From: a virus
Length of the DNA stretch: 64,000 nucleotides
Reading direction: 5' to 3' (one strand)
Virus record (IMG/VR): IMGVR_UViG_3300033978_000457
Coordinates: 36,126-100,125 of that record
The notes under the pieces were generated by a model that was not told the origin of the DNA, did not search any database, and saw only the letters and a list, made by a program, of their open reading frames with translations. Below are positions 53,119 to 64,000 of this stretch, one piece after another; positions within the stretch are counted from its first letter, which is position 1, and every line of letters starts with the position of its first letter. The position numbers and the translations under genes are program-made.

Positions 53119-53124
53119 GCTTTC

Positions 53125-53153
53125 AGCATAGCAGGTTTCGACTTCCTAGTCAA
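53125..53153 (-). promoter_or_regulatory. Sigma70-like promoter, leaderless
   Basis: -35 TTGACT (53148-53153), 17-bp spacer, -10 TATGCT (53125-53130), box AAAAATAGCTC. Seven bases from the -10 end to the A of the start codon. Confidence 0.86.
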
Positions 53154-53238
53154 GAGCTATTTTTCACGTCAACTAGAGAAGCGGATCGACGTTCGTCAGG
53201 GTTTCAATAAGTTCTACCTAGAGATCACAAAAATTTTA

Positions 53239-53267
53239 GTTGACTTATTTGAAAAGTCATGGTACTA
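53239..53267 (+). promoter_or_regulatory. Plus-strand sigma70-like promoter
   Basis: TTGACT (53239-53244), 17 bp, TACTAT (53262-53267), preceded by AAAAATTTTAG, similar to the minus-strand class box. Divergent from the promoter at 53125. Only good + strand promoter seen in the window. Confidence 0.75.
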
Positions 53268-53273
53268 TAGTAG

Positions 53274-53650
53274 TACAAGAGCTGAGAAGGACAGAATTAA
53301 TCCCTACCTGTCTGGAGAGCGGTGGGCTGACGCGAGCCATTTTTGTACTATTCGCTAAGCGAGCAGTTCAGCCACACCGCTCTCGTACAGACGTAATTTG
53401 ATTTAATAAAATACACATCATGGCAAGAGCGCCGCAATCCGTGCGTTAAAAACACACCATCTCGGGTCATTTTCAAGCCCCGAAATCCGTTCATTTTGTA
53501 TTGCTGAGCACAGGACTGGGTAAATTATACAGGCTCTCATGGAGCTTTGAGAAACCTAGACGGTGGGAGGGATACATACCCACATTCCGCCCGCCGCCGC
53601 GACACCACCGACCACAAAAAACCCGCTGGGATTGCTCCTAGCGGGTTTCT
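53274..53650 (+). ncRNA. Plus-strand noncoding transcript candidate
   Basis: Follows the + promoter and ends at the bidirectional hairpin at 53620-53647. No ORF longer than about 10 codons has a ribosome site. Contains a long hairpin: 53315-53330 pairs with 53368-53384 (16 bp, one bulge) around a 37-nt loop. Could be a regulatory or antisense RNA; this stretch holds no minus-strand gene either. Confidence 0.5.
53615..53650 (-). terminator. Bidirectional terminator
   Basis: AACCCGCT/AGCGGGTT stem with inner GGGA/TCCT pairs; TTTTTT on the minus strand and TTTCTCGTTT on the plus strand. Ends the holin-like gene at 53658 and probably the + transcript. Confidence 0.9.
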
Positions 53651-53657
53651 CGTTTAT

Positions 53658-54050
53658 TTATGTACGTAACGGTAGGTTAGCCGTCTCAGGGGCTAGTAGT
53701 CCTAGTCGAGCCTTCACCATTGCCTCTAGGGCTGTAGGTGTAATGCCAAACTGCTCTAGTGCATCTGGTGTTCGTTCAACAACATACTGTAGAACAGTAG
53801 CGATAAACGCATTGTCGAACTTGACCTCTAGGTTATTCTCTTTTACCTTTTGGGTTGCGTAGCCAATACCGTAGTTAATGGCTTCCTGGAGAATCTTTCT
53901 AGCAGCCTCTTCGGTAACAAGCACTCCAAAAGGAGTTTTAGCTTGAATCCAATCAACAAGAGGTTTTGCTAGTGCATTTAATATAACAAGCAATGCGGGC
54001 ACGCCAAAAGCGATGATCCATACTGCTAGTTCGTTAAAGTTAACAGACAT
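53658..54050 (-). CDS. Holin-like protein (LLH superfamily)
   Basis: 130 residues. One strong N-terminal transmembrane helix (LAVWIIAFGVPALLVILNAL), then an amphipathic cytoplasmic region with EEAARKILQEAINYGIGYAT, typical of LL-H-type holins. The lysis genes are dispersed: spanins at 39 kb, SleB at 9 kb. Confidence 0.65.
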   Translation of the reverse strand: MSVNFNELAVWIIAFGVPALLVILNALAKPLVDWIQAKTPFGVLVTEEAARKILQEAINYGIGYATQKVKENNLEVKFDNAFIATVLQYVVERTPDALEQFGITPTALEAMVKARLGLLAPETANLPLRT

Positions 54051-54076
54051 TTTTTCTTTCTAAGCTGCGTGCGAAC

Positions 54077-54475
54077 TTAAGCTGCGGCGGAGGCCGCCGC
54101 CCTTATTTTCGCCGAACTTGGTAGTCCTCTATCAATCACTTGATAGGAGACAATATTTGCGCCGAAATAAGTTTCGACAAACGCTAGTACATCTTCTGCG
54201 TCAAAGTCCTTGCACGAATACAAGTCCATTTGTAGCATTCCAGGATAAGGGTTGCCAGGCACATTATCCCAAATATGAATGCTTGCATGAGAAGTTGTGA
54301 TCACAACTACTCCTGTAACGCCACTGTTGTGTGGGTCGTCACAGTACTTTGCCTTGGCAGGCATAAAGATTTCCATATCAACTAGTTTAACCAGCTGAGT
54401 TAGGAAGCTCTCGATAACTCCTTCCGACTTTGGTGGGTTGTCAACGAGTGCTGTCAGTACGAGATGCTTATGCAT
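54077..54475 (-). CDS. S-adenosylmethionine decarboxylase-like protein
   Basis: 132 residues from ATG 54475. VVVITTSHASIHIWD corresponds to the SpeD/SpeH cleavage motif (E-S-H-x-x-x-H-T) in which Ser gives the pyruvoyl group; MLQMDLYSCKDFD corresponds to the D.FTCG strand, and length matches short SpeH-type enzymes. The usual Glu before Ser is Thr and the catalytic Cys context is altered, so activity needs testing. Would feed spermidine synthesis. Confidence 0.72.
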   Translation of the reverse strand: MHKHLVLTALVDNPPKSEGVIESFLTQLVKLVDMEIFMPAKAKYCDDPHNSGVTGVVVITTSHASIHIWDNVPGNPYPGMLQMDLYSCKDFDAEDVLAFVETYFGANIVSYQVIDRGLPSSAKIRAAASAAA

Positions 54476-54601
54476 ATAAATGACTCCGAAAGGACTTTCA
54501 ACCTCCCACGGAGATGGGGAAGTTTGACAGTCCAAGAATGGTCAACTTGACCGATTGTCGGGCTGCCGTCCAGACTCTCGTCCGCCTAGCTCCAAATGAT
54601 T
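54476..54601 (-). promoter_or_regulatory. Structured leader of the AdoMet decarboxylase gene
   Basis: 126 nt without ORF. Successive hairpins: CCGAC-AA-TCGG region, GGTCAA-G-TTGACC, CAAACTTCCC/GGGAGGTTG, and a final hairpin near the GGAG ribosome site. The arrangement would suit a regulatory leader. No known SAM riboswitch was matched by eye. Confidence 0.45.
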
Positions 54602-55039
54602 TTACGTAAGGTGATCCGCAGCATGGCTAGCTGCAAAAGAGTCAGGCTTGATCTTAGCATTTAGGCCTAGACCTCTAGCATAAGATAATACCTCTTTAAC
54701 CGCAACGTTTGACTTGTGTTTAGGGTTGGGGTTAATATCTAAATGGACCTCTAGTTGACGCCCATTTAACTCTTCTAGAACCTCTAGCGCAAGACCAAAT
54801 GCAAAATTTGCTTCGTTCTGTAGTCTTTGCTTTAGGTTTCCGTATTCGGGAAGAGTATAGTCGTGGTGTATAATTCTAGCGCCATTTGCGCTATTCATAT
54901 GCACGATGAAAACTACAACGTAATGTGCGGTTTTGCGGCCGTCTTTTTGTCTGCTAACCGAACTATCGCACCCAATGTAGAAGCTACTTGATGCACTTGC
55001 GGTTTGAATAGCTTCTTTACATTTATCTACGAATTCCAT
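54602..55039 (-). CDS. RNase H-like YkuK-family protein
   Basis: 145 residues. FYIGCDSSVSRQKDGRKTAH then YVVVFIVHM, with downstream LEVHLDINPNPKHKSN: the RNase H fold pattern of YkuK/DUF458. Nuclease activity not established for the family. Confidence 0.8.
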   Translation of the reverse strand: MEFVDKCKEAIQTASASSSFYIGCDSSVSRQKDGRKTAHYVVVFIVHMNSANGARIIHHDYTLPEYGNLKQRLQNEANFAFGLALEVLEELNGRQLEVHLDINPNPKHKSNVAVKEVLSYARGLGLNAKIKPDSFAASHAADHLT

Positions 55040-55054
55040 TGTAGTCCTTTGTGT

Positions 55055-55129
55055 TGGCGATCACGGTAGGACTCGAACCCACATAATTGTGCTTAGAAGG
55101 CACATGCCTATCCTTTAGACTACGTGATC
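55055..55129 (-). tRNA. tRNA-Arg(TCT)
   Basis: Acceptor GATCACG/CGTGATC, G73, encoded CCA, anticodon loop CTTCTAA on TGTGC/GCACA, T-loop TTCGAGT. Confidence 0.95.
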
Positions 55130-55219
55130 AGTACGTTTATAAATAAATTTGTCTGTTGGCTTAACAGAGTCCCACAGCATTAGTGCCATACCAAGGACTA
55201 CTTGAATTACGAAAAGCAT
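55115..55219 (-). CDS. 34-residue membrane peptide ending inside tRNA-Arg
   Basis: ATG 55219 to TAA 55115: MLFVIQVVLGMALMLWDSVK..., hydrophobic N-terminal half. The last five codons and stop are the 5' end of the Arg tRNA. Overlaps the upstream stop. Confidence 0.45.
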   Translation of the reverse strand: MLFVIQVVLGMALMLWDSVKPTDKFIYKRTDHVV

Positions 55220-55545
55220 TAGTCTAATTCCCTTTTTGTTATTTGTTTACCTATGCGGCGCGTATCTTTAGAAGATTGACGCTTGAGCGCACGATTGTTT
55301 CTGCGCTTAGCCCCAGTTTCATTAAACGTATCCATTTTACCAGAACCATCTGGCTTAGCAGACTCAAAACGCCAGTAGCCACGAGACTTCTCGTTTTTAC
55401 CATCAGCACCCTTCTCAGTGAGTTTCTGGTCCCTGCGCTCACGAGCTTCTCTAGCGGCGTTCCGATATAGATTTACCCCAAGGCTTGCCCATGTTCTTAG
55501 GGTGCGCTTGGGGTATACGTGATTATTTCGTTTTGTGTCACTCAT
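55219..55545 (-). CDS. Basic hypothetical protein
   Basis: 108 residues from ATG 55545 (MSDTKRNNHVYPKRTL...). Very rich in Arg/Lys; probably nucleic-acid-binding or ribosome-associated. No family. Confidence 0.65.
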   Translation of the reverse strand: MSDTKRNNHVYPKRTLRTWASLGVNLYRNAAREARERRDQKLTEKGADGKNEKSRGYWRFESAKPDGSGKMDTFNETGAKRRNNRALKRQSSKDTRRIGKQITKRELD

Positions 55546-55552
55546 TTTAAAC

Positions 55553-55689
55553 AGTCCTAGCAAGCCGGTGGGGTATCTGGGATTAGTGATATCCTATTCT
55601 ACCCGTAGGTAGAACTCCTTGCCCATCCTCCGTTTAACGTATGGCCTGTTACGTCTGCCCGTCGGCACTTTCCTTACTACGCTAGGACT
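55553..55689 (-). ncRNA. 137-nt structured RNA element
   Basis: Closed by AGTCCTAGC/GCTAGGACT (9 bp). Interior includes a hairpin around TTCTACCTACGGGTAGAA and GC-rich arms. Fills the gap between tRNA-Thr and the basic protein gene exactly. No ORF. Confidence 0.55.
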
Positions 55690-55701
55690 CTTTAAAGTGA
55701 G

Positions 55702-55775
55702 TGGTGCTTCTTCTGAGAATCGAACTCAGGATTGAGGATTACAAAACCACCGGTATACCATTTACCTAAAGAAGC
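55702..55775 (-). tRNA. tRNA-Thr(TGT)
   Basis: Acceptor GCTTCTT/AAGAAGC, A73, encoded CCA, T-loop TTCGATT. Loop TTTGTAA gives UGU, but the anticodon stem has two U-U mismatches. Confidence 0.82.
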
Positions 55776-55822
55776 ATGTGGAGTGTAAGTTTTGATTAGC
55801 ATTTCTCCAGTGGCTAATTCTA

Positions 55823-56119
55823 TTATACTACAACTGCAGTAGGAGCGCTGTCTCTGTATCCTGGGCCCTTAGCGTTACTGGCACGCACTGTGCAAATAAT
55901 TCTACGCCCAACATCCCCAGCTACAACTACGTATGTATTACCTGTTGCAGTACCTGTACCGTTCCAAGAATAAGTGTATGACAGCGGTGTATTAGTCCAA
56001 GTTCCGTTAGATACCGTCAATGTTTGGCCCACCGCAGCAGTTCCAGTTATAGCAGGAGCTACTGTATTTTTAGGCCTTAAAAGGCGACGACGACGTCTAC
56101 TAGGTAATACTTCTTGCAT
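55823..56119 (-). CDS. Ig-like domain protein in the tRNA array
   Basis: 98 residues. Basic start MQEVLPSRRRRRLLRPKN, then AVGQTLTVSNGTWTNTPLSY, TYSWNGTGTATGNTYVVVAG and CTVRASNAKG: the bacterial/phage Ig-like repeat (G.tL....G.W...P....Y.W). A surface-type domain amid tRNAs is unusual; could be a decoration protein. Confidence 0.75.
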   Translation of the reverse strand: MQEVLPSRRRRRLLRPKNTVAPAITGTAAVGQTLTVSNGTWTNTPLSYTYSWNGTGTATGNTYVVVAGDVGRRIICTVRASNAKGPGYRDSAPTAVVV

Positions 56120-56239
56120 ACGATTCCTTTAAAGGCTGCTCGATTGAGGGCTCTTACCCCACCATTCGCTAGGCATCGCTCATCCTAGTGGTGTATTCTC
56201 ACCCGTATCTTAGTTGGGACCAAGCCGTTATGATTTTGA
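56120..56239 (-). ncRNA. Structured spacer between Ig gene and tRNA-Arg(ACG)
   Basis: No ORF. A bulged hairpin CACCA-CTAGG...CCTAG-CGAA-TGGTG occupies 56166-56200. The bulge motif GCGAATG recurs in the neighbouring 93-nt element. Possibly the leader of the Ig-like gene. Confidence 0.45.
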
Positions 56240-56314
56240 TGGCGTTCCAAGAGAGAGTCGAACTCCCGACCTAACCGTTCGTAGCGGTTTGCTCTTCCTC
56301 TGAGCTACTGGAAC
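56240..56314 (-). tRNA. tRNA-Arg(ACG)
   Basis: Acceptor GTTCCAG/TTGGAAC, G73, encoded CCA, loop CTACGAA on AACCG/CGGTT, T-loop TTCGACT. Confidence 0.95.
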
Positions 56315-56322
56315 ATATTGAA

Positions 56323-56415
56323 TTAGGTAGAGCTGCAGTTCATGAGAACCCTAGCTGAGAGGGTGTGTGACATTCGCTTAGCCCACACAACTCGTTAGTG
56401 GGTACTCGTACCTAA
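56323..56415 (-). ncRNA. 93-nt four-helix RNA element
   Basis: Closing helix TTAGGTA/TACCTAA (7 bp). Three inner hairpins: GTGTG/CACAC with a GCGAATG loop, ACCCT-CTCAGCT-AGGGT (5 bp, 7-nt loop) and GTTC-TCAT-GAAC. Cloverleaf-like but without tRNA consensus loops. Ends within 10 nt of tRNAs on both sides. Confidence 0.55.
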
Positions 56416-56418
56416 AGA

Positions 56419-56494
56419 TGGCGGTTCTGACGGGTACCGACCCCGCTAATGTCCGGTTGACAACCGGGTGTGTTTACCAATTCACCACAGAACC
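56419..56494 (-). tRNA. tRNA-Asp(GTC)
   Basis: Acceptor GGTTCTG/CAGAACC, G73, encoded CCA, loop TTGTCAA. T-loop is GTCGGTA, deviating from TTCRA. Confidence 0.92.
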
Positions 56495-56503
56495 AATAAT
56501 GGA

Positions 56504-56564
56504 TTAGAAGGTAACGGCTTACACGCTACAGCTGGCTGGAGGCATTTCTGACACTCCCTTCTAA
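56504..56564 (-). ncRNA. 61-nt structured RNA element
   Basis: Closing helix TTAGAAGG/CCTTCTAA (8 bp), interior GAGTGTCAGAAATGCCTCC and a GCTGTAGCGTGTAAGC hairpin. Lies between tRNA-Asp and the 214-nt element. Confidence 0.5.
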
Positions 56565-56569
56565 ATGTA

Positions 56570-56783
56570 TAATATATAAGAGAGTTGTGCTTCTTCTTTT
56601 TCCCAATAGTCTTTTTCTGAGCGTCGACGCCCGTGTGAGAAAGAATCTAAGGTAGTGATAGCAGGATTGAAGCTGCTAGAAGTGGCACTTAAACCGCGCA
56701 ACTATAGAAACGTGCTTACCCGTCTTCACACGGTCCGACATTCCGCCTATAGCCTGTAGCTAACACAACTCACTTATATATTA
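56570..56783 (-). ncRNA. 214-nt structured RNA closed by a 19-bp helix
   Basis: 56570-56589 pairs with 56764-56783 (11 + 8 bp around one A-A mismatch). Inside, CCGTGTGA and TCACACGG form a second long-range helix, so the molecule is multi-branched. It starts 4 nt after the Glu tRNA CCA and contains no credible ORF. Longest such RNA here. Confidence 0.65.
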
Positions 56784-56786
56784 TCA

Positions 56787-56861
56787 TGGAAGTCCCTGCG
56801 GGTTCCGACCCCGCTTCCCGTGAGTGAAAATCACGGATCCTAGCCACTAGACGAAGGGACC
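56787..56861 (-). tRNA. tRNA-Glu(TTC)
   Basis: Acceptor GGTCCCT/AGGGACT, U73, encoded CCA, loop TTTTCAC on CGTGA/TCACG. T-loop GTCGGAA deviates from consensus as in tRNA-Asp. Confidence 0.93.
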
Positions 56862-56881
56862 ATCTCTGATCTTGTATACGT

Positions 56882-56910
56882 AGTATAGCTCCGATTGAGC
56901 TCGTAGTCAA
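56882..56910 (-). promoter_or_regulatory. Sigma70-like promoter for tRNA/structured-RNA unit
   Basis: -35 TTGACT (56905-56910), 17-bp spacer, -10 TATACT (56882-56887), perfect box AAAAAATAGTTC. Drives tRNA-Glu and all elements down to about 53.6 kb. Confidence 0.9.
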
Positions 56911-56935
56911 GAACTATTTTTTAAATCTTAGAAGG

Positions 56936-57010
56936 TGGCACGAGGGGAGAGAATCGAACTCTCATCTACGGTTTTGGAGACCGTCATTCTAGCCGTTGAA
57001 CTACACTCGC
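56936..57010 (-). tRNA. tRNA-Trp(CCA)
   Basis: Acceptor GCGAGTG/CCCTCGT with one U-C mismatch, G73, encoded CCA, loop CTCCAAA on ACGGT/ACCGT, T-loop TTCGATT. Confidence 0.93.
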
Positions 57011-57027
57011 GCACAGCCCTCTAAACT

Positions 57028-57198
57028 TTACTCAGCAACTCGTGTAGGCTCATCAACAGGTGGAGTTACAGGAAGAGGCTGAGGCTCAGAACCTGGACCT
57101 GCATCAGCAGGAGGAGGAATTACGTCTGGCTTGGGCTCGCTATTGGAGCAAGCAGTAGCCATAAGAGCAAGAGCGATAGTTGCAGTAATAAGTTTCAT
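57028..57198 (-). CDS. Small Pro-rich lipoprotein
   Basis: 56 residues from ATG 57198. Signal MKLITATIALALMATACSN with lipobox, then Pro/Glu-rich disordered tail (PPPADAGPGSEPQPLPVTPP). Envelope-located; possible role in exclusion or lysis timing. No homologue recognised. Confidence 0.75.
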   Translation of the reverse strand: MKLITATIALALMATACSNSEPKPDVIPPPADAGPGSEPQPLPVTPPVDEPTRVAE

Positions 57199-57225
57199 TT
57201 TAGTCCTTTCAGTTACAATTAAAGA

Positions 57226-57308
57226 TGGTGTCCACGGAGAGACTCGAACTCTCACGATTACTCGCTGGATTCTAAGTCCAGTGCGTCTACCAATTCCGCC
57301 ACGAGGAC
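57226..57308 (-). tRNA. tRNA-Leu(TAG)
   Basis: Acceptor GTCCTCG/CGTGGAC (one mismatch), A73, encoded CCA, loop CTTAGAA on CTGGA/TCCAG, Leu-type D-arm and variable arm, T-loop TTCGAGT. Confidence 0.95.
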
Positions 57309-57314
57309 ATTGTA

Positions 57315-57397
57315 TGGTGGGCAGCTGTGGTTACGATCCACTCCCCAAAGGACGGGTTTTACAGACCCGATGCTGAAACCATCAGCTTTAGCTACCC
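57315..57397 (-). tRNA. tRNA-Tyr(GTA)
   Basis: Acceptor GGGTAGC/GCTGCCC, A73, encoded CCA, loop CTGTAAA on CGGGT/ACCCG, short type II variable arm. T-loop ATCGTAA is nonconsensus. Confidence 0.92.
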
Positions 57398-57619
57398 AAA
57401 GTATTTCTCTACGGACCATTGACCAAGCTCGGTGTACCCACCAATAACTACACCATCAACCACTACGCATGGGACGGTAGGCCAAATCTGTTTGTATTCT
57501 TCACTAGTAATATCTTCACCAACCCTAACCTGGATGTAATTAATTGCTAGCATATTAAGTAAATTGCGTGCTTTTACACAATAAGGGCAATCTTCTTTAG
57601 TATATAGAACAATTTGCAT
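57392..57619 (-). CDS. Glutaredoxin
   Basis: 75 residues. VLYTKEDCPYCVKARNLL holds the CPYC active site, TVPCVVVDGVVIGGYTEL the cis-Pro and GG glutathione site. Electron donor for the phage ribonucleotide reductase. Its TAG stop is bases 4-6 of tRNA-Tyr. Confidence 0.95.
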   Translation of the reverse strand: MQIVLYTKEDCPYCVKARNLLNMLAINYIQVRVGEDITSEEYKQIWPTVPCVVVDGVVIGGYTELGQWSVEKYFG

Positions 57620-57634
57620 TAGGTTTCCTTATGT

Positions 57635-57708
57635 TGGAGCGGACTACGAGATTCGAACTCGTTTCGACGGGTTGGAAACCCGAGGCACAACCCATATACC
57701 AAATCCGC
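57635..57708 (-). tRNA. tRNA-Gly(TCC)
   Basis: Acceptor GCGGATT/AGTCCGC, U73, encoded CCA, loop TTTCCAA, T-loop TTCGAAT. Confidence 0.95.
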
Positions 57709-57714
57709 TAAAAA

Positions 57715-57792
57715 TGGCTGGTAGCATTGGACTCGAACCAATCTCATTCCCGGTTAACAGCCGGGCACCCTCACCTGGAGAGCTAGCTACCA
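57715..57792 (-). tRNA. tRNA-Asn(GTT)
   Basis: Acceptor TGGTAGC/GCTACCA, G73, encoded CCA, loop CTGTTAA on CCCGG/CCGGG, T-loop TTCGAGT. Confidence 0.96.
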
Positions 57793-57972
57793 AGAAGAAT
57801 AGTCCGTAATATCTACTTTAACGAGAATAAACGGATCGTCTATAAATCTAAACATAGCATCTACGGCAATCCCTATGCCAGTTTGATGCTCAATAAGACC
57901 AGCAAAATAAATGTCATCCGAAGTGGCAAGTATAGTATCAATATGCCCATGCTCTACTTCGTTAAGCGTCAT
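57787..57972 (-). CDS. 61-residue hypothetical protein ending in tRNA-Asn
   Basis: MTLNEVEHGHIDTILATSDD... alpha/beta. The final TGG TAG is the start of the Asn tRNA. Function unknown. Confidence 0.65.
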   Translation of the reverse strand: MTLNEVEHGHIDTILATSDDIYFAGLIEHQTGIGIAVDAMFRFIDDPFILVKVDITDYSSW

Positions 57973-57988
57973 TTTAAATTCCTATGAT

Positions 57989-58064
57989 TGGCTGGGGCTG
58001 ATGGACTCGAACCACCGCATGGTAGAATCAAAGTCTACTGCCTTACCAGCTTGGCTAAGCCCCA
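57989..58064 (-). tRNA. tRNA-Gln(TTG)
   Basis: Acceptor TGGGGCT/AGCCCCA, G73, encoded CCA, loop CTTTGAT on GTAGA/TCTAC, T-loop TTCGAGT. Confidence 0.95.
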
Positions 58065-58069
58065 GCAAA

Positions 58070-58145
58070 TGGTGGACCCTATCGGACTCGAACCGATCAC
58101 CTCCTGCGTGCAAAGCAGGCGCTCTCCCAGATGAGCTAAGGGCCC
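58070..58145 (-). tRNA. tRNA-Ala(TGC)
   Basis: Acceptor GGGCCCT/AGGGTCC, A73, encoded CCA, loop TTTGCAC on CCTGC/GCAGG, T-loop TTCGAGT. Confidence 0.96.
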
Positions 58146-58322
58146 TTATTTAATCCTAATCTTCTGCACCCTAGTTTTAGGAGCTGCATCTTCCATTCTA
58201 TGCTTATGGTCTAGCCAACCAGCAGCCCACTCTGTAGCTTTCCAACTACCTCTATCGTAGGGATTCCGCTCTATGGGTACACCTTCGATGCGGGCCATTC
58301 TTCCTAGGCTGTATTCTTCCAT
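58146..58322 (-). CDS. Ribosome modulation factor (RMF)-like protein, copy 1
   Basis: 58 residues, ATG 58322 to TAA 58146, ending exactly at the Ala tRNA. Core GRMARIEGVPIERNPYDRGS followed by EWAAGWLDHKHR matches the RMF pattern G...A..G......PY.......W..GW, and the tail is basic (KTRVQKIRIK). RMF binds 30S/70S and forms inactive ribosome dimers. Activity here is inference. Confidence 0.72.
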   Translation of the reverse strand: MEEYSLGRMARIEGVPIERNPYDRGSWKATEWAAGWLDHKHRMEDAAPKTRVQKIRIK

Positions 58323-58335
58323 AAGTCACCTATAA

Positions 58336-58421
58336 TGGCGGAAAGCTGAGGTCTCGATCCCCAAACCTTTCGGTTCGCTTCCTTTAGCAAAGGAGCACAG
58401 ACCCTGTCTGCTTAACTTTCC
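58336..58421 (-). tRNA. tRNA-Ser(GCT)
   Basis: Acceptor GGAAAGT/GCTTTCC, G73, encoded CCA, loop TTGCTAA, long variable arm. Confidence 0.93.
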
Positions 58422-58627
58422 GTATTTTCTGCTCCGAAGAGATTAGTCCACTCTTCAGGTGTCACACCTGTCATAAGGAATTCCCGCTCACCTGCTGTCA
58501 GGTTCGGGAATGCATCTTGAATGAGAGGTCCGAAACCGCTTGCCCAAGTGGCGTAGGCTTCGGGGTCAATGTTCAGTTCCATGGTGTTAGCCGCGCCAGT
58601 AAAGGCAGAGATACGACCGATCTTCAT
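58412..58627 (-). CDS. Hypothetical protein ending in tRNA-Ser
   Basis: 71 residues, MKIGRISAFTGAANTMELNI..., with AGEREFLMTGVTPEEW. The TAA lies in the acceptor/D region of tRNA-Ser (10-nt overlap). Resembles small phage proteins with a GVTPEEW helix; function unknown. Confidence 0.7.
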   Translation of the reverse strand: MKIGRISAFTGAANTMELNIDPEAYATWASGFGPLIQDAFPNLTAGEREFLMTGVTPEEWTNLFGAENTES

Positions 58628-58651
58628 TTAGTTCTCCATCATTGAACAAAC

Positions 58652-58680
58652 AGTATAACCCGCATTGAGCGGGTTGTCAA
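58652..58680 (-). promoter_or_regulatory. Sigma70-like promoter with a hairpin spacer
   Basis: -35 TTGACA (58675-58680), -10 TATACT (58652-58657), box AAAAAAAAGTTC. The 17-bp spacer is itself an inverted repeat, ACCCGC-TCAAT-GCGGGT. Confidence 0.88.
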
Positions 58681-58895
58681 GAACTTTTTTTTAAGCTGTC
58701 TTCGTATTTTTTTGCCTTTTTAAAAGCTTCTCTAAATGCACGTTTAGGATTGTTTGCTATAGCAACGCATAGCACTGGCTCAAAAGCTAGCACATCCTTT
58801 GCTAAAATGACTTCCCACAGGTCTAGTCCTTGAGATATAGTCATTCGCCAATCTTCACCAAGTTTACGAAGGTCTTGCTCTTGCTCTACTAGCAT
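58677..58895 (-). CDS. Hypothetical helical protein
   Basis: 72 residues, MLVEQEQDLRKLGEDWRMTI; all-alpha with basic C-terminus (KRAFREAFKKAKKYEDS). Ends in the -35 of the promoter at 58652-58680. Confidence 0.7.
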   Translation of the reverse strand: MLVEQEQDLRKLGEDWRMTISQGLDLWEVILAKDVLAFEPVLCVAIANNPKRAFREAFKKAKKYEDSLKKSS

Positions 58896-58905
58896 CTTTA
58901 ACTCC

Positions 58906-58983
58906 TGGAGGAAAGGGTGGGATTCAAACCCACGGTTTTAAGGATTTGCAGTCCCTTGCGTTGGGTCACTCCGCCACCTTCCC
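58906..58983 (-). tRNA. tRNA-Cys(GCA)
   Basis: Acceptor GGGAAGG/CCTTTCC, U73, encoded CCA, loop CTGCAAA on AGGGA/TCCTT, T-loop TTTGAAT. Confidence 0.94.
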
Positions 58984-59074
58984 GAAAATATCAACTAGGT
59001 CCACTCAGGGGTTACAGCCCCTCGCTTCGCCCCCTGTAAGGAACCGCGCTGCGATATCCTGCGCGCCTATTCTT
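58984..59074 (-). other. Structured spacer between tRNA-Lys(CTT) and tRNA-Cys
   Basis: 91 nt, no ORF. Arms TACAG/CTGTA and CAGGGG/CCCCTG can form around 59000-59035; another GCGC-rich arm lies at 59050-59065. Fits the pattern of structured RNA between tRNAs. Confidence 0.4.
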
Positions 59075-59150
59075 TGGAGAACCAGGTGAGACTCGAACTC
59101 ACGTAAAGGAGATTAAGAGCCTCCCGCTAAACCACCTCAGCTACTGGTTC
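59075..59150 (-). tRNA. tRNA-Lys(CTT)
   Basis: Acceptor GAACCAG/CTGGTTC, U73, encoded CCA, loop CTCTTAA, T-loop TTCGAGT. Shares its acceptor stem with tRNA-Lys(TTT). Confidence 0.95.
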
Positions 59151-59318
59151 AATAGTGTAATATACTTCGCCTAGCGAGTCATCTTCAGCGTCTACCCTTA
59201 GATATTCTGCTACTAGCTCGACAGCTTCTTCTATAGAAGGTATCTCTATAGCAAAAGCTCTATGATCATCAGTATAACCGTACTCGTCTAGAGTATGGGT
59301 CAATATTCGGTATTTCAT
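59127..59318 (-). CDS. Hypothetical protein whose C-terminus is encoded by tRNA-Lys
   Basis: 63 residues from ATG 59318, MKYRILTHTLDEYGYTDDHR, alpha/beta. The last eight codons (EPVAEVV and stop) are the acceptor and D-arm of tRNA-Lys(CTT), a 24-nt overlap. Confidence 0.65.
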   Translation of the reverse strand: MKYRILTHTLDEYGYTDDHRAFAIEIPSIEEAVELVAEYLRVDAEDDSLGEVYYTIEPVAEVV

Positions 59319-59333
59319 AGTTACCTCTAAAAT

Positions 59334-59408
59334 TGGAGAACCAGGAGAATTTCGAAATCTCAACCTGCGGATTAAAAGCCCGACGCTCTGCCTTTGAGCT
59401 ACTGGTTC
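59334..59408 (-). tRNA. tRNA-Lys(TTT)
   Basis: Acceptor GAACCAG/CTGGTTC, U73, encoded CCA, loop CTTTTAA, T-loop TTCGAAA. Confidence 0.94.
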
Positions 59409-59414
59409 ATTATT

Positions 59415-59490
59415 TGGTACGCGGTGAGGGATTTGAACCCCCGACCAAGCCGTTATGAGCGGCCGGCTCTAACCACTGAGCTAACCGCGT
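59415..59490 (-). tRNA. tRNA-Met(CAT), or Ile2 if modified
   Basis: Acceptor ACGCGGT/ACCGCGT, A73, encoded CCA, loop CTCATAA, T-loop TTCAAAT. No initiator features (no 1-72 mismatch). Elongator Met or lysidine-modified Ile cannot be distinguished by eye. Confidence 0.93.
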
Positions 59491-59757
59491 TTAAAACATT
59501 CCGTCGTGCAGCTCTGGGTCATAAGGTTCTGCCCAGCCTTCGATGTGCTCTGTATAGCTGTCCTGATGCTCTTCGTCTTCAAACTCTTCGGGAGCATCTT
59601 CTATCGGGTAGTACCCGTATGACTCTGCATGTTGCAATGCCATGTCCCACACAACGCTATTTAAGTCTTCTTGTGTGTGGTCGTCAGGCATTTCCAGCAT
59701 TTCAGCACACTCTGTGCCCACTGTGGCAGCAAACATATGCACTACGTACTTTTTCAT
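59491..59757 (-). CDS. Acidic hypothetical protein
   Basis: 88 residues, MKKYVVHMFAATVGTECAEM..., then strongly acidic (EEFEDEEHQDSYTEHIEGWA). Stop abuts the Met tRNA. Resembles small acidic phage proteins; function unknown. Confidence 0.7.
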   Translation of the reverse strand: MKKYVVHMFAATVGTECAEMLEMPDDHTQEDLNSVVWDMALQHAESYGYYPIEDAPEEFEDEEHQDSYTEHIEGWAEPYDPELHDGMF

Positions 59758-59774
59758 TGCTTTTCTCTATAAAA

Positions 59775-59849
59775 TGGTACCCGGTGACGGGATTGAACCG
59801 CCGACAATTCCCGTGTAAAGGGAGCACTCTACCGCTGAGTTAACCGGGC
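59775..59849 (-). tRNA. tRNA-Val(TAC)
   Basis: Acceptor GCCCGGT/ACCGGGT, A73, encoded CCA, loop TTTACAC on CTCCC/GGGAA, T-loop TTCAATC. Confidence 0.95.
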
Positions 59850-59860
59850 TTAAAATTTGG

Positions 59861-60021
59861 TCAGTGTGCCATCTAGGCGTCTCCGGCCCACGCCGGTGTT
59901 CTAAGCTTTACCCTGTTGTCTCCTGTACACCTGTGCACGGATAACAAGCCTACGCTAGGGAATCTGCAACCTACTCTGCCCGTTAACAAGGCTACCCTCA
60001 GTTCCACTAAACTAACACTGA
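59861..60021 (-). ncRNA. 161-nt structured RNA element
   Basis: Closing helix TCAGTGT/ACACTGA (7 bp). Internal arms include ACACCGGCGTGGGCCGG and a GTGCACAGGTGTAC hairpin. Fills the gap between tRNA-Ile and tRNA-Val. No ORF. Confidence 0.5.
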
Positions 60022-60024
60022 TTC

Positions 60025-60098
60025 TGGTACTTCTTAAAAGAATCGAACTTTTATCTAACGCCTATCAAGCGCCTGCTCTACCATTGAGCTAAAGAAGT
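60025..60098 (-). tRNA. tRNA-Ile(GAT)
   Basis: Acceptor ACTTCTT/AAGAAGT, A73, encoded CCA, loop TTGATAG, T-loop TTCGATT. Confidence 0.94.
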
Positions 60099-60101
60099 AT
60101 A

Positions 60102-60251
60102 TTATTGTACTGGCTTGATCATGTAGTAGTGTTCTTCGTCCTCGAACTCATCTGCATCGAGATAAGAATCTACTAGCTCGTCGGCCTCTTCACGAGTTAC
60201 ATTACGGTCGATAACTACGCCGTCCATGTATACGTTGTATTTCTTTTCCAT
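60102..60251 (-). CDS. 49-residue acidic protein
   Basis: ATG 60251 to TAA 60102: MEKKYNVYMDGVVIDRNVTR then acidic helix (ADEFEDEEHYYMIK). Sits between two tRNAs with 4- and 15-nt gaps. Confidence 0.7.
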   Translation of the reverse strand: MEKKYNVYMDGVVIDRNVTREEADELVDSYLDADEFEDEEHYYMIKPVQ

Positions 60252-60265
60252 GTTTCACCTGTAAT

Positions 60266-60348
60266 TGGTATCCCCTGCCGGAATCGAACCGGCACTCCGA
60301 AGAAACAGATTTTAAGTCTGCCGCGTCTACCAGTTTCGCCAAGGGGAC
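60266..60348 (-). tRNA. tRNA-Leu(TAA)
   Basis: Acceptor GTCCCCT/AGGGGAT, A73, encoded CCA, loop CTTAAAA on GCAGA/TCTGT, long variable arm, T-loop TTCGATT. Confidence 0.96.
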
Positions 60349-60687
60349 TTAATCTTCTTTACCGAAAGTATCTCTAGTTCTTAGCACTTCTACCATATAA
60401 AGCAAAGAGGGCTTCTGACTCTTGGTTAACCCTACCATCTGCTCATAATCTAGATATAGCATCTCACAAATCTCGTGAACAAGCTCTTCCTTAGAGACGG
60501 GTTTATCCGCATACTTTGGGGTATACGGCACCTTCTGATAAATCTTAAGACGAGAGAGCTTTCCGATAATTGATCGTGTTGACACTTCAAATTTATCGGC
60601 TAGAAAATCCACTGTCTCCTTAGTAGGAGCGAAAGTGTATTCCTCTATCATGAGAGCGATCTGCTCGTCTGTGTATTTTTTGCTCAC
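60349..60687 (-). CDS. HTH DNA-binding protein, D5-like
   Basis: 112 residues. VDFLADKFEVSTRSIIGKLS is a clear HTH similar to the D5-like modules; upstream helix YTDEQIALMIEEY. C-terminal half helical. TAA directly abuts tRNA-Leu. Confidence 0.75.
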   Translation of the reverse strand: MSKKYTDEQIALMIEEYTFAPTKETVDFLADKFEVSTRSIIGKLSRLKIYQKVPYTPKYADKPVSKEELVHEICEMLYLDYEQMVGLTKSQKPSLLYMVEVLRTRDTFGKED

Positions 60688-60923
60688 TTAAATATCCCAA
60701 AAATTTCTTTTGTTTTGGTAACGGTCCAGATGTTATCTAACAGCTTTTCGTCATTACCACCGGCAGCTACATATTCAGCGCCTAATTTGATATATCTATC
60801 TTCCCAGTTTTCTACTAACTGCCTCACTTGGGCAGACAATTCGTTGATACGAGTTGCTTCATCTTCTAGCAATCGTAAGTGTTTCTCTAGCCCTTTATGT
60901 AGGGGGAATGCTTCTACAGTCAT
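60684..60923 (-). CDS. Helical hypothetical protein
   Basis: 79 residues; coiled-coil-like LEDEATRINELSAQVRQLVE. 4-nt overlap with the HTH gene. Function unknown. Confidence 0.65.
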   Translation of the reverse strand: MTVEAFPLHKGLEKHLRLLEDEATRINELSAQVRQLVENWEDRYIKLGAEYVAAGGNDEKLLDNIWTVTKTKEIFGIFK

Positions 60924-60966
60924 GAAATCTCCACATTCCTACGCGGCCCCGTCTCGCCCGTAGAAT

Positions 60967-61045
60967 GACATTCCGTTCCGGCATGGGAGCCCGGCCAGCA
61001 CTACAAGGTCCGCAGACACAAGAGTGAACATAGCCGCCGAATGTC
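60967..61045 (-). ncRNA. 79-nt structured RNA element
   Basis: Closing helix GACATTC/GAATGTC (7 bp); interior hairpin GGCCGGGCTCCCATGCCGG-type arm and a second arm with GTCTGCGGACC. Directly follows the 137-nt element. Confidence 0.5.
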
Positions 61046-61050
61046 TTACC

Positions 61051-61187
61051 TAAACTTTATGAAGTGTATATAAGGTATTTAACTGCTATAACCACCATTC
61101 TCACTTCGAAGTCTATAAATGGGTTGAGCAATCTAAGCATCCCTGTGCACCAGGGTTGTTTCTCTTATATACACGTCGTAAAGTTTA
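61051..61187 (-). ncRNA. 137-nt structured RNA closed by a 20-bp helix
   Basis: 61051-61074 pairs with 61164-61187: 9 bp, a symmetric 4-nt internal loop, then 11 bp. Inside are CCCTG-GTGCA-CAGGG and an ACTTCGAAGT hairpin flanked by GAGAATGG. No ORF. Architecture parallels the 214-nt RNA at 56570. Confidence 0.62.
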
Positions 61188-61193
61188 CAGAAA

Positions 61194-61268
61194 CATACAG
61201 AGACAAACCAGCATTCTCATCCCGTGAGTCGATCGTACGGGCTGTGCAAGGTTTTATCACTCTGTATG
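61194..61268 (-). ncRNA. 75-nt structured RNA, tRNA-sized
   Basis: Closing helix CATACAGAG/CTCTGTATG (9 bp). Inside, CAGC...GCTG encloses CCCGT-loop-ACGGG followed by GATGAGAAT. No tRNA loops or CCA. Confidence 0.55.
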
Positions 61269-61577
61269 CATCAATAAACTTCTCTGACCAAGCTCCGACC
61301 TTCGCTTGGGCAAGTCTCTAGCAATCTAGAGCCCTATAGAGTTTTGCAAAACTCTTCCACATCATTAAGGTAGGGCCACGACTTCCTACATCACGATGGT
61401 CATTTTTAACGAAAGGATGCTTGCATCCAAAACGCCGGGGCGGTACCGGTCTAACCGCCTATGCACATAATTTGAGTACTACTTATGTGACTGAAGTAGA
61501 CGGGGGCTCTCACCCAACTGGTCCGCACTATCACGGATATCTACTTAGTGGAACGTGATGTTAATGACCTCTTACCA
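61269..61577 (-). other. Gene-free structured segment
   Basis: 309 nt without a convincing ORF. Contains an 18-nt perfect palindrome AGAGTTTTGCAAAACTCT (61338-61355), CTCTAG/CTAGAG and GGATGC/GCATCC hairpins, CACATAA/TTATGTG, GGCGG/CCGCC, and a 53-nt two-hairpin element (61494-61546) closed by AAGTAGA/TCTACTT. Confidence 0.5.
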
Positions 61578-61769
61578 CTATGCGTCAAGTATTAGGACTT
61601 TAAAGTGCGTGCAATACCAATGCACTGAGGAGTAGGAAAATTCCTCGTCTGATTTTGGTACAGACCCTTCCAAGAACACCGTAGCGCCTACCGCGTCTAC
61701 CGGAATAGCCCAGGCTTTCAACCTGCACTTGTCTTGCATTCCTCGTGCGCAAAACCAAACACTATCCAA
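61578..61769 (-). CDS. 63-residue Cys/Trp-containing protein, TTG start
   Basis: TTG 61769 preceded by AAGGGG. Product MDSVWFCARGMQDKCRLKAW, then IPVDAVGATVFLEGSV and YSSVHWYCTHFKVLI. Amino-acid composition looks protein-like, with four Cys/His-type ligands. It is the only ORF in this structured region; could be chance. Confidence 0.5.
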   Translation of the reverse strand: MDSVWFCARGMQDKCRLKAWAIPVDAVGATVFLEGSVPKSDEEFSYSSVHWYCTHFKVLILDA

Positions 61770-62192
61770 TGTACCCCTTTGGCAGGAGCGTATCTTAAAC
61801 TAGAGTACGCACAGTAGTGAGTTACAAGTTTCTCACTAATAGCTGTCTCGCCGCTATTGCCCCTCGTCTATATGTCGGTGGGGTGTACCGGAACTGGAGA
61901 CGAGTAATGCCTTTCGGCACTTATTTACGTCTAGTGCGTTCGATTAATCGCGTCCAATCGCTCCCGTCATGGATCAGGTGGGTTTCAGAGGTCTCTATTG
62001 ACTTACCCATATCTCAACTCTGAGGCAAGGGGTCCCTTACGAGGCTCCCGAAGACTCTGGGCTTTTAGATTTCGCCCTACCTGTGCAACTTGAGGGTGTG
62101 CACAACCGCAGTAAGTGATTAGGTTTTAGCTCACTAGGGCTTTGTTTGTAATACGAGGTCAAGCCCTGTCTACATACAAACAACCATAAATC
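61770..62192 (-). other. Gene-free structured segment
   Basis: 423 nt with no minus-strand ORF. Hairpins include TTGTTTGTA/TACAAACAA, CTCGTCT/AGACGAG enclosing CGGT/ACCG, GTGAG/CTCAC, GCGTA/TACGC and GGGC/GCCC. Probably several small RNAs between the tRNA-like gene and the 63-residue ORF. Confidence 0.5.
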
Positions 62193-62263
62193 GCGCGGTG
62201 AAGGGGTTTGATACCTTCAGCTTCCACCATATCCGGTTCGCGTCTACCTTCCGCCAACCGCGC
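62193..62263 (-). pseudogene. Degenerate Leu-type tRNA
   Basis: Acceptor GCGCGGT/ACCGCGC and a typical Leu D-arm (TTGGCGGAAGGTAGACGC), but the anticodon arm forms only ACC/GGT around GGATAT, the T-loop is enlarged (GAAGG-9 nt-CCTTC) and CCA is not encoded. Probably a tRNA remnant or tRNA-shaped RNA. Confidence 0.5.
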
Positions 62264-62309
62264 TAGATCAAATGGACAGGCTTTGCCCCCTCTTCGATCT
62301 TGAATACAC

Positions 62310-62338
62310 AGTATACACGATATGGGCCCTGCAGTCAA
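62310..62338 (-). promoter_or_regulatory. Sigma70-like promoter for the structured-RNA region
   Basis: -35 TTGACT (62333-62338), 17-bp spacer, -10 TATACT (62310-62315), box AAAAATAGTTC. Second of two tandem promoters. Confidence 0.9.
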
Positions 62339-62358
62339 GAACTATTTTTCAGGCCTCG

Positions 62359-62385
62359 GGGAGAACTTCTTCTGGTTGTTCTCCC
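62359..62385 (-). terminator. Hairpin between tandem promoters
   Basis: GGGAGAAC/GTTCTCCC, 8 bp, 11-nt loop. Not followed by uridines. It forms only in RNA from the upstream promoter at 62397, so it may attenuate or protect that RNA. Confidence 0.5.
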
Positions 62386-62396
62386 ATCGTTTAAAC

Positions 62397-62425
62397 AGTA
62401 TAGCTGAGCTTCAGTCCCCAGTCAA
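62397..62425 (-). promoter_or_regulatory. Sigma70-like promoter, upstream of the tandem pair
   Basis: -35 TTGACT (62420-62425), 17-bp spacer, -10 TATACT (62397-62402), box AAAAAATACTTC. Confidence 0.9.
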
Positions 62426-62442
62426 GAAGTATTTTTTAACTC

Positions 62443-62673
62443 TCAGACCGCGCTGCCCATTGTTATGCCGACAGCGTAGATAAGTGTAATAACTCCCTGC
62501 ACAAAGAACAGGCTCCACTTCTTCCAAATCCACCCTAGATAAAGCCACCCGAGGTTGCCTACTAGGCTAATCCAAAGGTTGAAAGGGTGAATATTAAAAC
62601 TCGTTAGAGCTACCCCGACAATCAGGGTAGCTGTAATGCCCCACTCAAGGGTAAGATCTTTGTTCAGTGTCAT
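62443..62673 (-). CDS. DUF6552-like membrane protein
   Basis: 76 residues from ATG 62673. Three hydrophobic helices with the pattern SFNIHPFNLWISLVGNLGWL and GVITLIYAVGI, as in a small phage family (S.NIYPLn......W.....L.iIY..Gl). Function unknown. Confidence 0.75.
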   Translation of the reverse strand: MTLNKDLTLEWGITATLIVGVALTSFNIHPFNLWISLVGNLGWLYLGWIWKKWSLFFVQGVITLIYAVGITMGSAV

Positions 62674-62674
62674 T

Positions 62675-62881
62675 TCACATCTCGTTAAGTTCTTTGTTGT
62701 GCGCCTTACGCAGAGCAACAGCATATCTCCAGCCATCACCAAATTGTTCTTTGTCAGCCGGAACCAGATCGTCTAGGCACTCGTAGAAAGCATCTGCGTT
62801 GTCTCTACACTCAATAGCGTAGATGAAACCTTCGCGCCATGCAATTGGCTGGCCGAAGAAAATTCGATCAAGTTCTTTCAT
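62675..62881 (-). CDS. RMF-like protein, divergent copy
   Basis: 68 residues. AWREGFIYAIECRDNADAFY...FGDGWRYAVALRKAHNK keeps the (W/R)EGF.YA..C...W/GW..A arrangement of the two neighbouring RMF-like genes but lacks the CPY. Likely a diverged paralogue. 4-nt overlap with the next gene. Confidence 0.5.
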   Translation of the reverse strand: MKELDRIFFGQPIAWREGFIYAIECRDNADAFYECLDDLVPADKEQFGDGWRYAVALRKAHNKELNEM

Positions 62882-63045
62882 ATTTTTTCTCCAAGGTACT
62901 TATCACGAGCCCAAGTCCAACCCTCGTACCAGCTTTCTAGATGGTACTCATTGTCGTAGGGGCAATCGTTTTCGGACACGCCGTGCTCGTAATCTTCGTA
63001 TCCCCGAACCCACTCAGGACTATGCTTTGTAAAATCTACTATCAT
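62878..63045 (-). CDS. Ribosome modulation factor (RMF)-like protein, copy 2
   Basis: 55 residues from ATG 63045 (GAGGGGG upstream). WVRGYEDYEHGVSENDCPYD...SWYEGWTWARDK matches RMF RGYqaG...CPY.......W..GW.eA closely in spacing. Best RMF match in the window. Confidence 0.78.
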   Translation of the reverse strand: MIVDFTKHSPEWVRGYEDYEHGVSENDCPYDNEYHLESWYEGWTWARDKYLGEKI

Positions 63046-63059
63046 AAATAACCCCCTCC

Positions 63060-63118
63060 AGAAAAAGACTAGTGCTTTTGAAATAGACCCTTGTAGAAAA
63101 AGACTAGCCCTTTTCAAA
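63060..63118. repeat. Two 24-bp imperfect direct repeats
   Basis: AGAAAAAGACTAGTGCTTTT at 63060 and AGAAAAAGACTAGCCCTTTT at 63095, each near-palindromic around ACTAG. They lie between the two RMF-like genes, the second overlapping the stop of copy 3. Confidence 0.75.
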
Positions 63119-63301
63119 ATGGTCAGTAATTCTAGCGTCCATAACAATATCGTTGTATTCTTCGCCACGAGCATACGAGTACCCTTCGCACCACATCTCA
63201 GCATCCTTGCTGGCTGGCATATAAGGGCAATCTGCTATCGTTTTAGCACTGAAGAAAGCTTTCCAGCCTTCTTGAAATTTGTTAACAATAACTATAGTCA
63301 T
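63104..63301 (-). CDS. RMF-like protein, copy 3
   Basis: 65 residues from ATG 63301 (GGAG upstream). FQEGWKAFFSAKTIADCPYM...MWCEGYSYARGEEYND follows the same G..A....CPY......W..G(W/Y)..A pattern as copy 2. Different tail (MDARITDHFEKG). Confidence 0.7.
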   Translation of the reverse strand: MTIVIVNKFQEGWKAFFSAKTIADCPYMPASKDAEMWCEGYSYARGEEYNDIVMDARITDHFEKG

Positions 63302-63327
63302 TTTAACACTCCATAAAGTTGTATAAA

Positions 63328-63469
63328 AACTAGTGCAAGTGATCTCGTCTATATCTTTAATCTCTCGCACAACGCTGGTCCTCATCCATCAGGAGCTAGG
63401 CCTGGGCTTTGTTGGATACAGTCACTTTTTCATTGAGAGCGCAAAAGATATGTAGATGTTGCACTAGTT
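63328..63469 (-). ncRNA. 142-nt structured leader/RNA closed by an 11-bp helix
   Basis: AACTAGTGCAA (63328-63338) pairs with TTGCACTAGTT (63459-63469). It lies between the promoter at 63498 and the RMF-like genes. No ORF. May be a regulatory leader or a separate RNA. Confidence 0.55.
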
Positions 63470-63497
63470 ATTATACCACTCCTCCGATCATTTATAG

Positions 63498-63526
63498 AGT
63501 ATAGGTTCAATCGAGGCGGAAGTCAA
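63498..63526 (-). promoter_or_regulatory. Sigma70-like promoter for the RMF-like operon
   Basis: -35 TTGACT (63521-63526), 17-bp spacer, -10 TATACT (63498-63503), box AAAATAGGTC. First promoter seen from the right edge. Confidence 0.88.
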
Positions 63527-63539
63527 GACCTATTTTCGG

Positions 63540-64000
63540 GATTCTCCTGTGAGCCGCACCCCATTTTTGTCCTGTAATTGACAGCGTAAGCGCTTTCCTG
63601 ACCGGGGCCATTCTCGAAAAAACTGTCAAGAAATTTCTTTGAAATTGTCAAAATTGCGTCATTTCACGACGAACCCAGCAGCTTTTCTCTAACTATCTCA
63701 AACCATCGTCGTCGATCGCCAACTATCCCCCGGGCGACGAAACTAAAATAGATTAACCCAAACTATCCACGATTTGCCGGGATTAACGGGATTCATCGGC
63801 GGTAGCTGGGCGCAGTTGAGCGAGAACTATAATATAGTAGTTGACACACTGTTTCAGTTTTGCACTGTCAAGCCCGGCCGAGAAATAAAAAATAGATGTT
63901 GCACTCGCACTGGCGCAGAGCTTGCGCGCGCCGTTGCAATTGAGAATCAGTCGCAACTGGGCTAAAACCTTGAATTCATTGGTTTTTTTGCTGCAAAAAA
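63540..64000. other. Gene-free right end with phased AACYATC repeats
   Basis: No credible ORF on either strand. AACTATC or near copies start at 63691, 63701 (AACCATC), 63721, 63741 (AACTAAA) and 63761, all spaced by multiples of 10 bp. Also two TTGACA sites 23 bp apart on the minus strand (63614-63643 region) with no -10, and a 13-bp repeat TAGATGTTGCACT (63893) shared with 63453. Candidate origin, packaging or regulatory region. Confidence 0.55.

What the first reader, a model, noticed from the sequence alone, without database searches (positions are those of the whole stretch)
55553..62263. Family of multibranched RNAs with long closing helices alternating with tRNAs
At least eight segments that fill gaps between tRNAs end in complementary arms of 7-20 bp (55553-55689, 56323-56415, 56504-56564, 56570-56783, 59861-60021, 60967-61045, 61051-61187, 61194-61268), with smaller internal hairpins and a recurring GNGAATG bulge. 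They have no ORF, no tRNA consensus and no CCA. T4 has two stable non-tRNA RNAs (C and D) in its tRNA cluster, but this number and complexity is unusual. They may be new noncoding RNAs or RNase III processing units.
Basis: partly seen in the sequence, partly recalled or inferred. Interest (0 to 1): 0.85.

Follow-up and report, generated by a model that had tools for sequence, protein, structure and literature searches.

The report
New structured RNAs in phage tRNA clusters
Some of the non-coding gaps in this phage's tRNA cluster are genuine structured RNAs: one belongs to a previously unnamed RNA family found in the tRNA clusters of many phages, its shape supported by strong matched mutations, although its job is unknown.

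Summary
The window is the end of a 100-kb viral contig whose 5.3-kb tRNA array is read leftwards. Segment 55553-55689 belongs to a widespread RNA family ("Family A") that matches nothing in Rfam 15. A core DNA pattern found at least 120 stretches in viral contigs. Of 91 distinct members, 70 lie within 300 nt of a tRNA, all 70 on the tRNA's strand; typical members start 0-3 nt after one tRNA and end 7-10 nt before the next. Covariation is decisive (score 0.53 against 0.15 +/- 0.01 shuffled, 0/500). The core AAGGAAAGY...GGAGNAUGGGCA...GAUACCNCACC is nearly invariant. The other segments are orphans: three fold clearly better than shuffles (56570-56783, 61051-61187, 61194-61268); the rest are unproven. 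Family A is not T4 RNA C/D. No GOLLD match lies in the region searched here, though GOLLD shares arrays with Family A in relatives. Most likely Family A is a small stable trans-acting RNA, co-transcribed and trimmed with the tRNAs. Its target is unknown.

The parts
55558..55684 (-). Family A RNA (new family), long form with P2 and P3 hairpins
   Evidence: covariance model R1 match 52.2 bits, E 2.5e-12; the window's copy is one of the 49 sequences the model was built from. Covariation in A1
55680..55689 (-). Family A closing helix P1, 5' strand (pairs with 55553-55564)
   Evidence: fold; arm p=0.003; P1 covaries in A1
55553..55564 (-). Family A closing helix P1, 3' strand
   Evidence: fold; arm p=0.003
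55667..55675 (-). conserved unpaired motif AAGGAAAGU
   Evidence: near-invariant columns of A1
55620..55631 (-). core 5' strand GGAGGAUGGGCA
   Evidence: invariant except position N, which covaries
55564..55577 (-). core 3' strand GAUACCCCACCGGC
   Evidence: invariant except N'
   Evidence: pattern found in four other viral contig stretches, in inter-tRNA gaps; helix UCNN/NNGA changes consistently; model R2 E 1.6e-14, window copy used in building
56570..56783 (-). orphan segment with long closing helix
   Evidence: folding z -3.35, arm p<0.004; no homologue found
61051..61187 (-). orphan segment with closing helix; shares a 44-nt domain with 61194-61268
   Evidence: z -5.25, arm p<0.004; self similarity; pattern found only in this genome
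61194..61268 (-). orphan segment, shares domain with 61051-61187
   Evidence: z -3.6, arm p=0.003
   Evidence: z -1.2, arm p=0.18
   Evidence: z -1.25, arm p=0.08
   Evidence: z -1.2, arm p=0.06
   Evidence: z -1.2, arm p=0.10
55055..60348 (-). tRNA array in which the elements lie (18 ARAGORN tRNAs)
62310..62338 (-). perfect TTGACT-17-TATACT promoter-like site upstream of the array
62397..62425 (-). second such promoter-like site
56882..56910 (-). third such promoter-like site, inside the array, reading towards 56570-56783 and 55558-55684

Best explanation
The segment at 55558-55684 encodes a small structured RNA of a new, widespread phage family (Family A). The RNA is transcribed as part of the polycistronic tRNA transcript. 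Maturation of the neighbouring tRNAs cuts it out: 3' processing of the upstream tRNA exposes its 5' end, and RNase P cleavage of a downstream tRNA, where there is one, frees its 3' end. The closing helix P1 protects the ends, leaving a stable 65-150-nt RNA that acts in trans during infection, probably on the translation or tRNA machinery with which it is co-produced. Its invariant unpaired core (AAGGAAAGY...AUGGGCA...GAUACC) would be the binding or active site, while P1, P2, P3 and P4 are scaffold. The second family (56131-56229) and the well-folded orphans would be other RNAs of the same RNA island. Shown: homology, structure, covariation, tRNA-array location and orientation. Inferred: transcription, processing, stability, trans action. 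Guessed: the target.
For: Covariation score 0.531 against 0.154 +/- 0.012 shuffled (0/500) and at most 0.102 when slid. The freely chosen pattern position pairs in 90 of 91 distinct members as A-U 47, C-G 30, G-C 12, U-G 1. P1, P3, P4 and AAGGAAAG were not part of the search pattern yet are present. 70 of 91 members within 300 nt of a tRNA, 70/70 same strand; usual spacing 0-3 nt and 7-10 nt. At most one copy per locus. No Rfam match to Family A loci. Two isolates carry it: Vibrio phage 1.121.O and Cobetia phage Carin-5. Promoter-like sites read into the array.
Against: No RNA has been seen; transcription and processing are inferred. About a fifth of members lie where no tRNA was found in the fetched stretch, and L129 has one close to terminase-like genes, so a tRNA neighbour is not obligatory. 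The window's copy has a tRNA on one side only. No target or partner is known.
Confidence: 0.6

Rival explanations
1. The elements are cis-acting spacers of the tRNA transcript: the closing helices are substrates for a double-strand nuclease such as RNase III, or insulate tRNA folding, and the RNAs have no function once released.
For: Tight position between tRNAs and always the same strand; variable sequence of the P1 arms; the orphans have closing arms but no detectable homologues.
Against: A spacer needs only the helix; Family A keeps an almost invariant unpaired core across very different phages and also occurs where no tRNA was found nearby. One copy per locus rather than one per spacer.
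Confidence: 0.2
2. Family A is a self-cleaving ribozyme or a cis-acting ligand-binding element that controls release of the tRNAs from the transcript.
For: Compact fold with invariant unpaired nucleotides around variable helices, as expected of a catalytic or ligand-binding core.
Against: No match to any Rfam ribozyme or riboswitch; no conserved nucleotide outside P1 that could mark a cleavage site was seen; not tied to one downstream gene.
Confidence: 0.12
3. The segments are debris of decayed tRNAs or fused tRNA fragments that fold by chance.
For: T4 rnaC carries a T-arm-like sequence; relatives of 56131-56229 carry GGUUCGAAAC; 62188-62268 looks like a decayed tRNA.
Against: Family A has no T arm or CCA and does not match T4 rnaC/rnaD. 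Covariation shows a maintained, non-tRNA fold.
Confidence: 0.08

Closest known systems
T4 RNA C (species 1) and RNA D (species 2)
   Same: small RNAs annotated as stable, encoded in a phage tRNA cluster on the tRNA strand
   Different: no match to the Family A model: about 5 bits at best there, with filters off; rnaC contains a T-arm-like sequence
GOLLD RNA (RF02032)
   Same: phage/prophage RNA often near tRNA islands, function unknown (PMC12286853); shares arrays with Family A in L041 and L227
   Different: more than 800 nt in many members and cage-forming (PMC12286853); Family A is 65-150 nt with an unrelated core; no GOLLD match in window 50000-64000
ROOL RNA
   Same: encoded in phages and prophages, often near tRNA islands (PMC12286853)
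   Different: described there as a large multi-pseudoknot cage-forming RNA; no ROOL match in window 50000-64000
tRNA / tmRNA
   Same: same transcript strand, similar size to a tRNA in the short form, same spacing as neighbouring genes
   Different: no anticodon, T loop or CCA; not called by ARAGORN or Rfam

Membership tests
Family A (defined here) | core GGAGN AUGGGCA ... GAUACC N' CACC with N-N' paired | tested here: met
   window GGAGGAUGGGCA / GAUACCCCACC; R1 E 2.5e-12, the window copy being part of the model
Family A (defined here) | closing helix P1 and unpaired AAGGAAAGY | tested here: met
   present; P1 has a small internal loop in the window copy
Family A (defined here) | tRNA neighbour on the same strand | tested here: met
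   17 nt downstream of tRNA-Thr 55702-55775
GOLLD (RF02032) | conserved 3' region matching the Rfam model | tested here: not met
   no match in window 50000-64000 at E<=1, nor in 60900-62300 at E<=10
T4 RNA C / RNA D | sequence/structure homology | tested here: not met
   Family A model finds nothing convincing at T4 rnaC/rnaD, filters off
tRNA | cloverleaf with T loop and CCA | tested here: not met
intrinsic terminators | GC-rich hairpin followed by a T run | tested here: not met
   terminator-like sites in the region are at chance level (8 against 6.9) and none coincides with a closing helix
RNase III processing units | cleavage in the helix in vivo | not testable with these tools
   needs RNA end mapping in infected cells
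Stable small RNA | discrete RNA in infected cells | not testable with these tools
   needs RNA-seq of infected cells

The most novel reading that the evidence does not exclude
Phages with large tRNA arrays carry an RNA island: a repertoire of separate, tRNA-co-processed, trans-acting structured RNAs (Family A as the common one, the second family, GOLLD, tmRNA and lineage-specific orphans), with Family A having a defined catalytic, ligand-binding or ribosome/tRNA-machinery-binding core that helps the phage take over translation.
Probability: 0.35. Interest if true: 0.9.

Novelty: new variant of a known kind. Interest (0 to 1): 0.75.

Why it matters
Phage tRNA arrays are usually annotated as tRNAs plus empty spacers. 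Here a spacer proves to hold a small RNA family with an almost invariant core, present in at least 120 viral-contig stretches and in two sequenced isolates, unannotated in both and with no Rfam match. It sits beside GOLLD in some arrays. Because it occurs in cultured phages and is small, its expression, structure and partners can be tested directly, which would bear on what phage tRNA islands do.

Tried and rejected
(1) Close relatives by flanking proteins: the 112-aa and metallophosphoesterase queries found only this genome. DNA polymerase relatives exist down to T5-like phages, but twelve of them, searched by whole record, gave no convincing match to 60900-62500 and only short tRNA- or promoter-sized matches to the array. 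(2) Whole-region BLAST against phages hit tRNAs. (3) Homology to T4 RNA C/D: rejected. (4) GOLLD or any Rfam family for 61273-62263: no match; folding energy is uninformative even for true GOLLD. (5) Bacterial genome scan with one strict G-C pattern gave one hit, L136, judged a chance match because the rest of the motif is missing; this does not exclude the other variants in bacteria. (6) Resemblance of AAGGAAAGU, GUAAGAG and AGAUACC to conserved RNase P RNA segments: considered from memory, set aside because the P4 pairing is absent and Rfam gives no match. (7) A small ORF starting at the core AUG: rejected because P4 length varies out of frame. (8) The domain shared by 61051-61187 and 61194-61268: pattern found only in this genome. 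(9) Plasmid collection: no real match. (10) Folding energy as a test: weak even for proven Family A members (z +0.65 to -2.67), so a poor z does not disprove an orphan.
Full report
Setting. The window is bases 36126-100125 of a 100,125-base viral record, IMGVR_UViG_3300034021_000678. Its DNA polymerase is about 45% identical to those of T5-like phages and 72-100% to several metagenomic contigs. A tRNA array on the minus strand runs from 60348 down to 55055; ARAGORN tRNAs there and a tmRNA at 39705-40110. Two further gap segments, 57313-57400 and 58338-58424, read by eye as tRNA-Tyr(GUA) and tRNA-Ser(GCU) with unusual T loops; BLAST finds similar sequences in other arrays. Seven sites with the exact sequence TTGACT-17-TATACT occur in the contig, all on the minus strand. 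Two lie just upstream of the array, at 62310-62338 and 62397-62425.

Observation. Their ends are complementary (duplex energy -13 to -25 kcal/mol, against -8.1 in coding controls), but only four exceed shuffled sequence individually in both arms and folding energy. The segments are not one sequence family; only 61051-61187 and 61194-61268 share a domain. The GNGAATG motif is over-represented, 4 against 0.5 expected, but was noticed before it was counted. A ninth segment, 56131-56229, was missed.

Family A. A relative found through the RNase H-like gene beside the array, L041, carries in an inter-tRNA gap a segment with the same internal motifs as 55553-55689 but a completely different closing helix. 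A strict DNA pattern from these two found eight viral contig stretches, the window's own included. BLAST found a variant in Vibrio phage 1.121.O (MG592495) in which G-C at one position is A-U. Of 91 distinct members the free position forms A-U 47, C-G 30, G-C 12, U-G 1, with one mismatch.

Structure and covariation. In 49 diverse members (A1) the structure is P1 (9 pairs), AAGGAAAGY, optional hairpins P2 and P3, AAA, then a core helix (A/C)GG-A-G-N with an A.A mismatch and AU bulge, AUGGGCA, hairpin P4, GAUACC, N'CACC(U/G), P1'. The pairs score 88% paired and covariation 0.531, against 0.154 +/- 0.012 when shuffled (0/500) and at most 0.102 when slid. The shuffle control ignores relatedness, but the slid control keeps it. 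P3 was counted separately in the long members: its innermost pair takes six types. RNAfold of the Cobetia phage Carin-5 copy (PV155638, L257) alone gives the same fold. Model R1 matches the window at 55558-55684 with E 2.5e-12 and nothing else there convincingly, and matches once per locus in nearly all loci tested. Members used to build the model match it by construction; the Carin-5 copy, not used in building, scores 75.5 bits.

Location. 75 of 91 members have a tRNA in the fetched stretch and 70 have one within 300 nt, always on the same strand. In a sample of 20 chosen for close neighbours, most start 0-3 nt after the upstream tRNA and end 7-10 nt before the next. This is the spacing of a gene processed with its neighbours. 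The window's copy is 17 nt downstream of tRNA-Thr and is followed by an ORF. Some members lie where no tRNA was found, for instance near terminase-like genes in L129, so the link is strong but not obligate.

Second family. The 56120-56236 segment shares GAGAAUACACC...GGUGGGGUAAGAG with four other contig stretches, L251, L258, L259, L260, in inter-tRNA gaps ending 22-25 nt before a tRNA. The UCNN...NNGA helix changes consistently between members, but five sequences, of which two are near-identical, are too few for a firm covariation claim. Model R2 found no further convincing member in the loci searched. L251 and L258 also carry Family A, and L259 comes from the same contig as Family A locus L150.

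Orphans. No homologue was found for the other segments in 2 Mb of held loci. 56570-56783, 61051-61187 and 61194-61268 fold clearly better than shuffles. 56323-56415, 56504-56564, 59861-60021 and 60967-61045 remain unproven. The 991-nt ORF-poor stretch 61273-62263 gives z -0.65. Three true GOLLD RNAs give +0.43, -1.6 and -0.26, and proven Family A members +0.65 to -2.67, so this test cannot decide.

Known families. Rfam finds only tRNAs in the array apart from sub-threshold noise, and nothing over Family A in L128, L129 and L133. GOLLD is present above its gathering score in arrays L021, L041 and L227; L041 and L227 also hold Family A. GOLLD and ROOL are described as phage or prophage RNAs, often near tRNA islands, of unknown function (PMC12286853, read). 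T4 RNA C/D do not match Family A. Searches of the held open-access library returned no paper recognised as describing this family; the library is incomplete and, except for passages of one paper, only titles, abstract beginnings and hit counts were seen, so prior description elsewhere cannot be excluded.

Mechanism. Best reading: a small stable RNA made with the tRNAs and acting in trans, with the unpaired core as the functional site. Transcription and processing are inferred from position and promoter-like sites, and the target is a guess. Rivals are a cis processing spacer, a ribozyme or ligand-binding element, and tRNA debris.

Verdict. The claim of an eight-member family does not.

Noticed in passing
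window 61273-62263 (-): About 1 kb without a convincing ORF directly downstream of two perfect promoter-like sites, beginning with a decayed tRNA-like fold at about 62188-62268. It could be a large ornate RNA like GOLLD, but has no Rfam match and folding energy does not decide.
   Followed up: partly
window 57313-57400 and 58338-58424 (-): Two probable tRNAs missed by ARAGORN: Tyr(GUA) and Ser(GCU), both with T loops beginning AUCG (AUCGUAA, AUCGAGA) instead of UUCR.
   Followed up: partly
window 39705-40110 (-): Phage-encoded tmRNA, called by ARAGORN in its tmRNA* form, with tag ANDNVAFEDMRLAA; related arrays L032, L144 and L227 hold permuted tmRNAs by Rfam.
   Followed up: no
L021:10846-11317, L041:8853-9303, L227:8501-8962: GOLLD RNAs above Rfam's gathering score inside phage tRNA arrays; in L021 and L041 a tRNA lies within the matched stretch.
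   Followed up: partly
L004:7399-7548, L022:10814-11007, L045:644-902: Another apparent inter-tRNA structured RNA family (CTGGAGGTTCC...GGGAACGTAAAGAGCGAAATTAC...ACCTCAGTAGCC), not analysed further.
   Followed up: no
L024, L025, L027, L029, L030, L033 Lys-Gln gaps and L045:4600-4806: A further apparent conserved inter-tRNA element (GAATTATCC...GAGAGACCTAG...GCGAATATCGG), not analysed further.
   Followed up: no
L021:13005-13176, L027:6938-7107, L045:7014-7182: manA RNA motifs (RF01745) beside the tRNA arrays of related phages.
   Followed up: no
G000 (whole contig): Seven exact TTGACT-17-TATACT sites, all on the minus strand, with more one-mismatch variants: probably this phage's main host-type promoters.
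   Followed up: partly
window 23190-33532: Highly repetitive ORFs (Ala/Glu-rich and collagen-like GTQG repeats).
   Followed up: no
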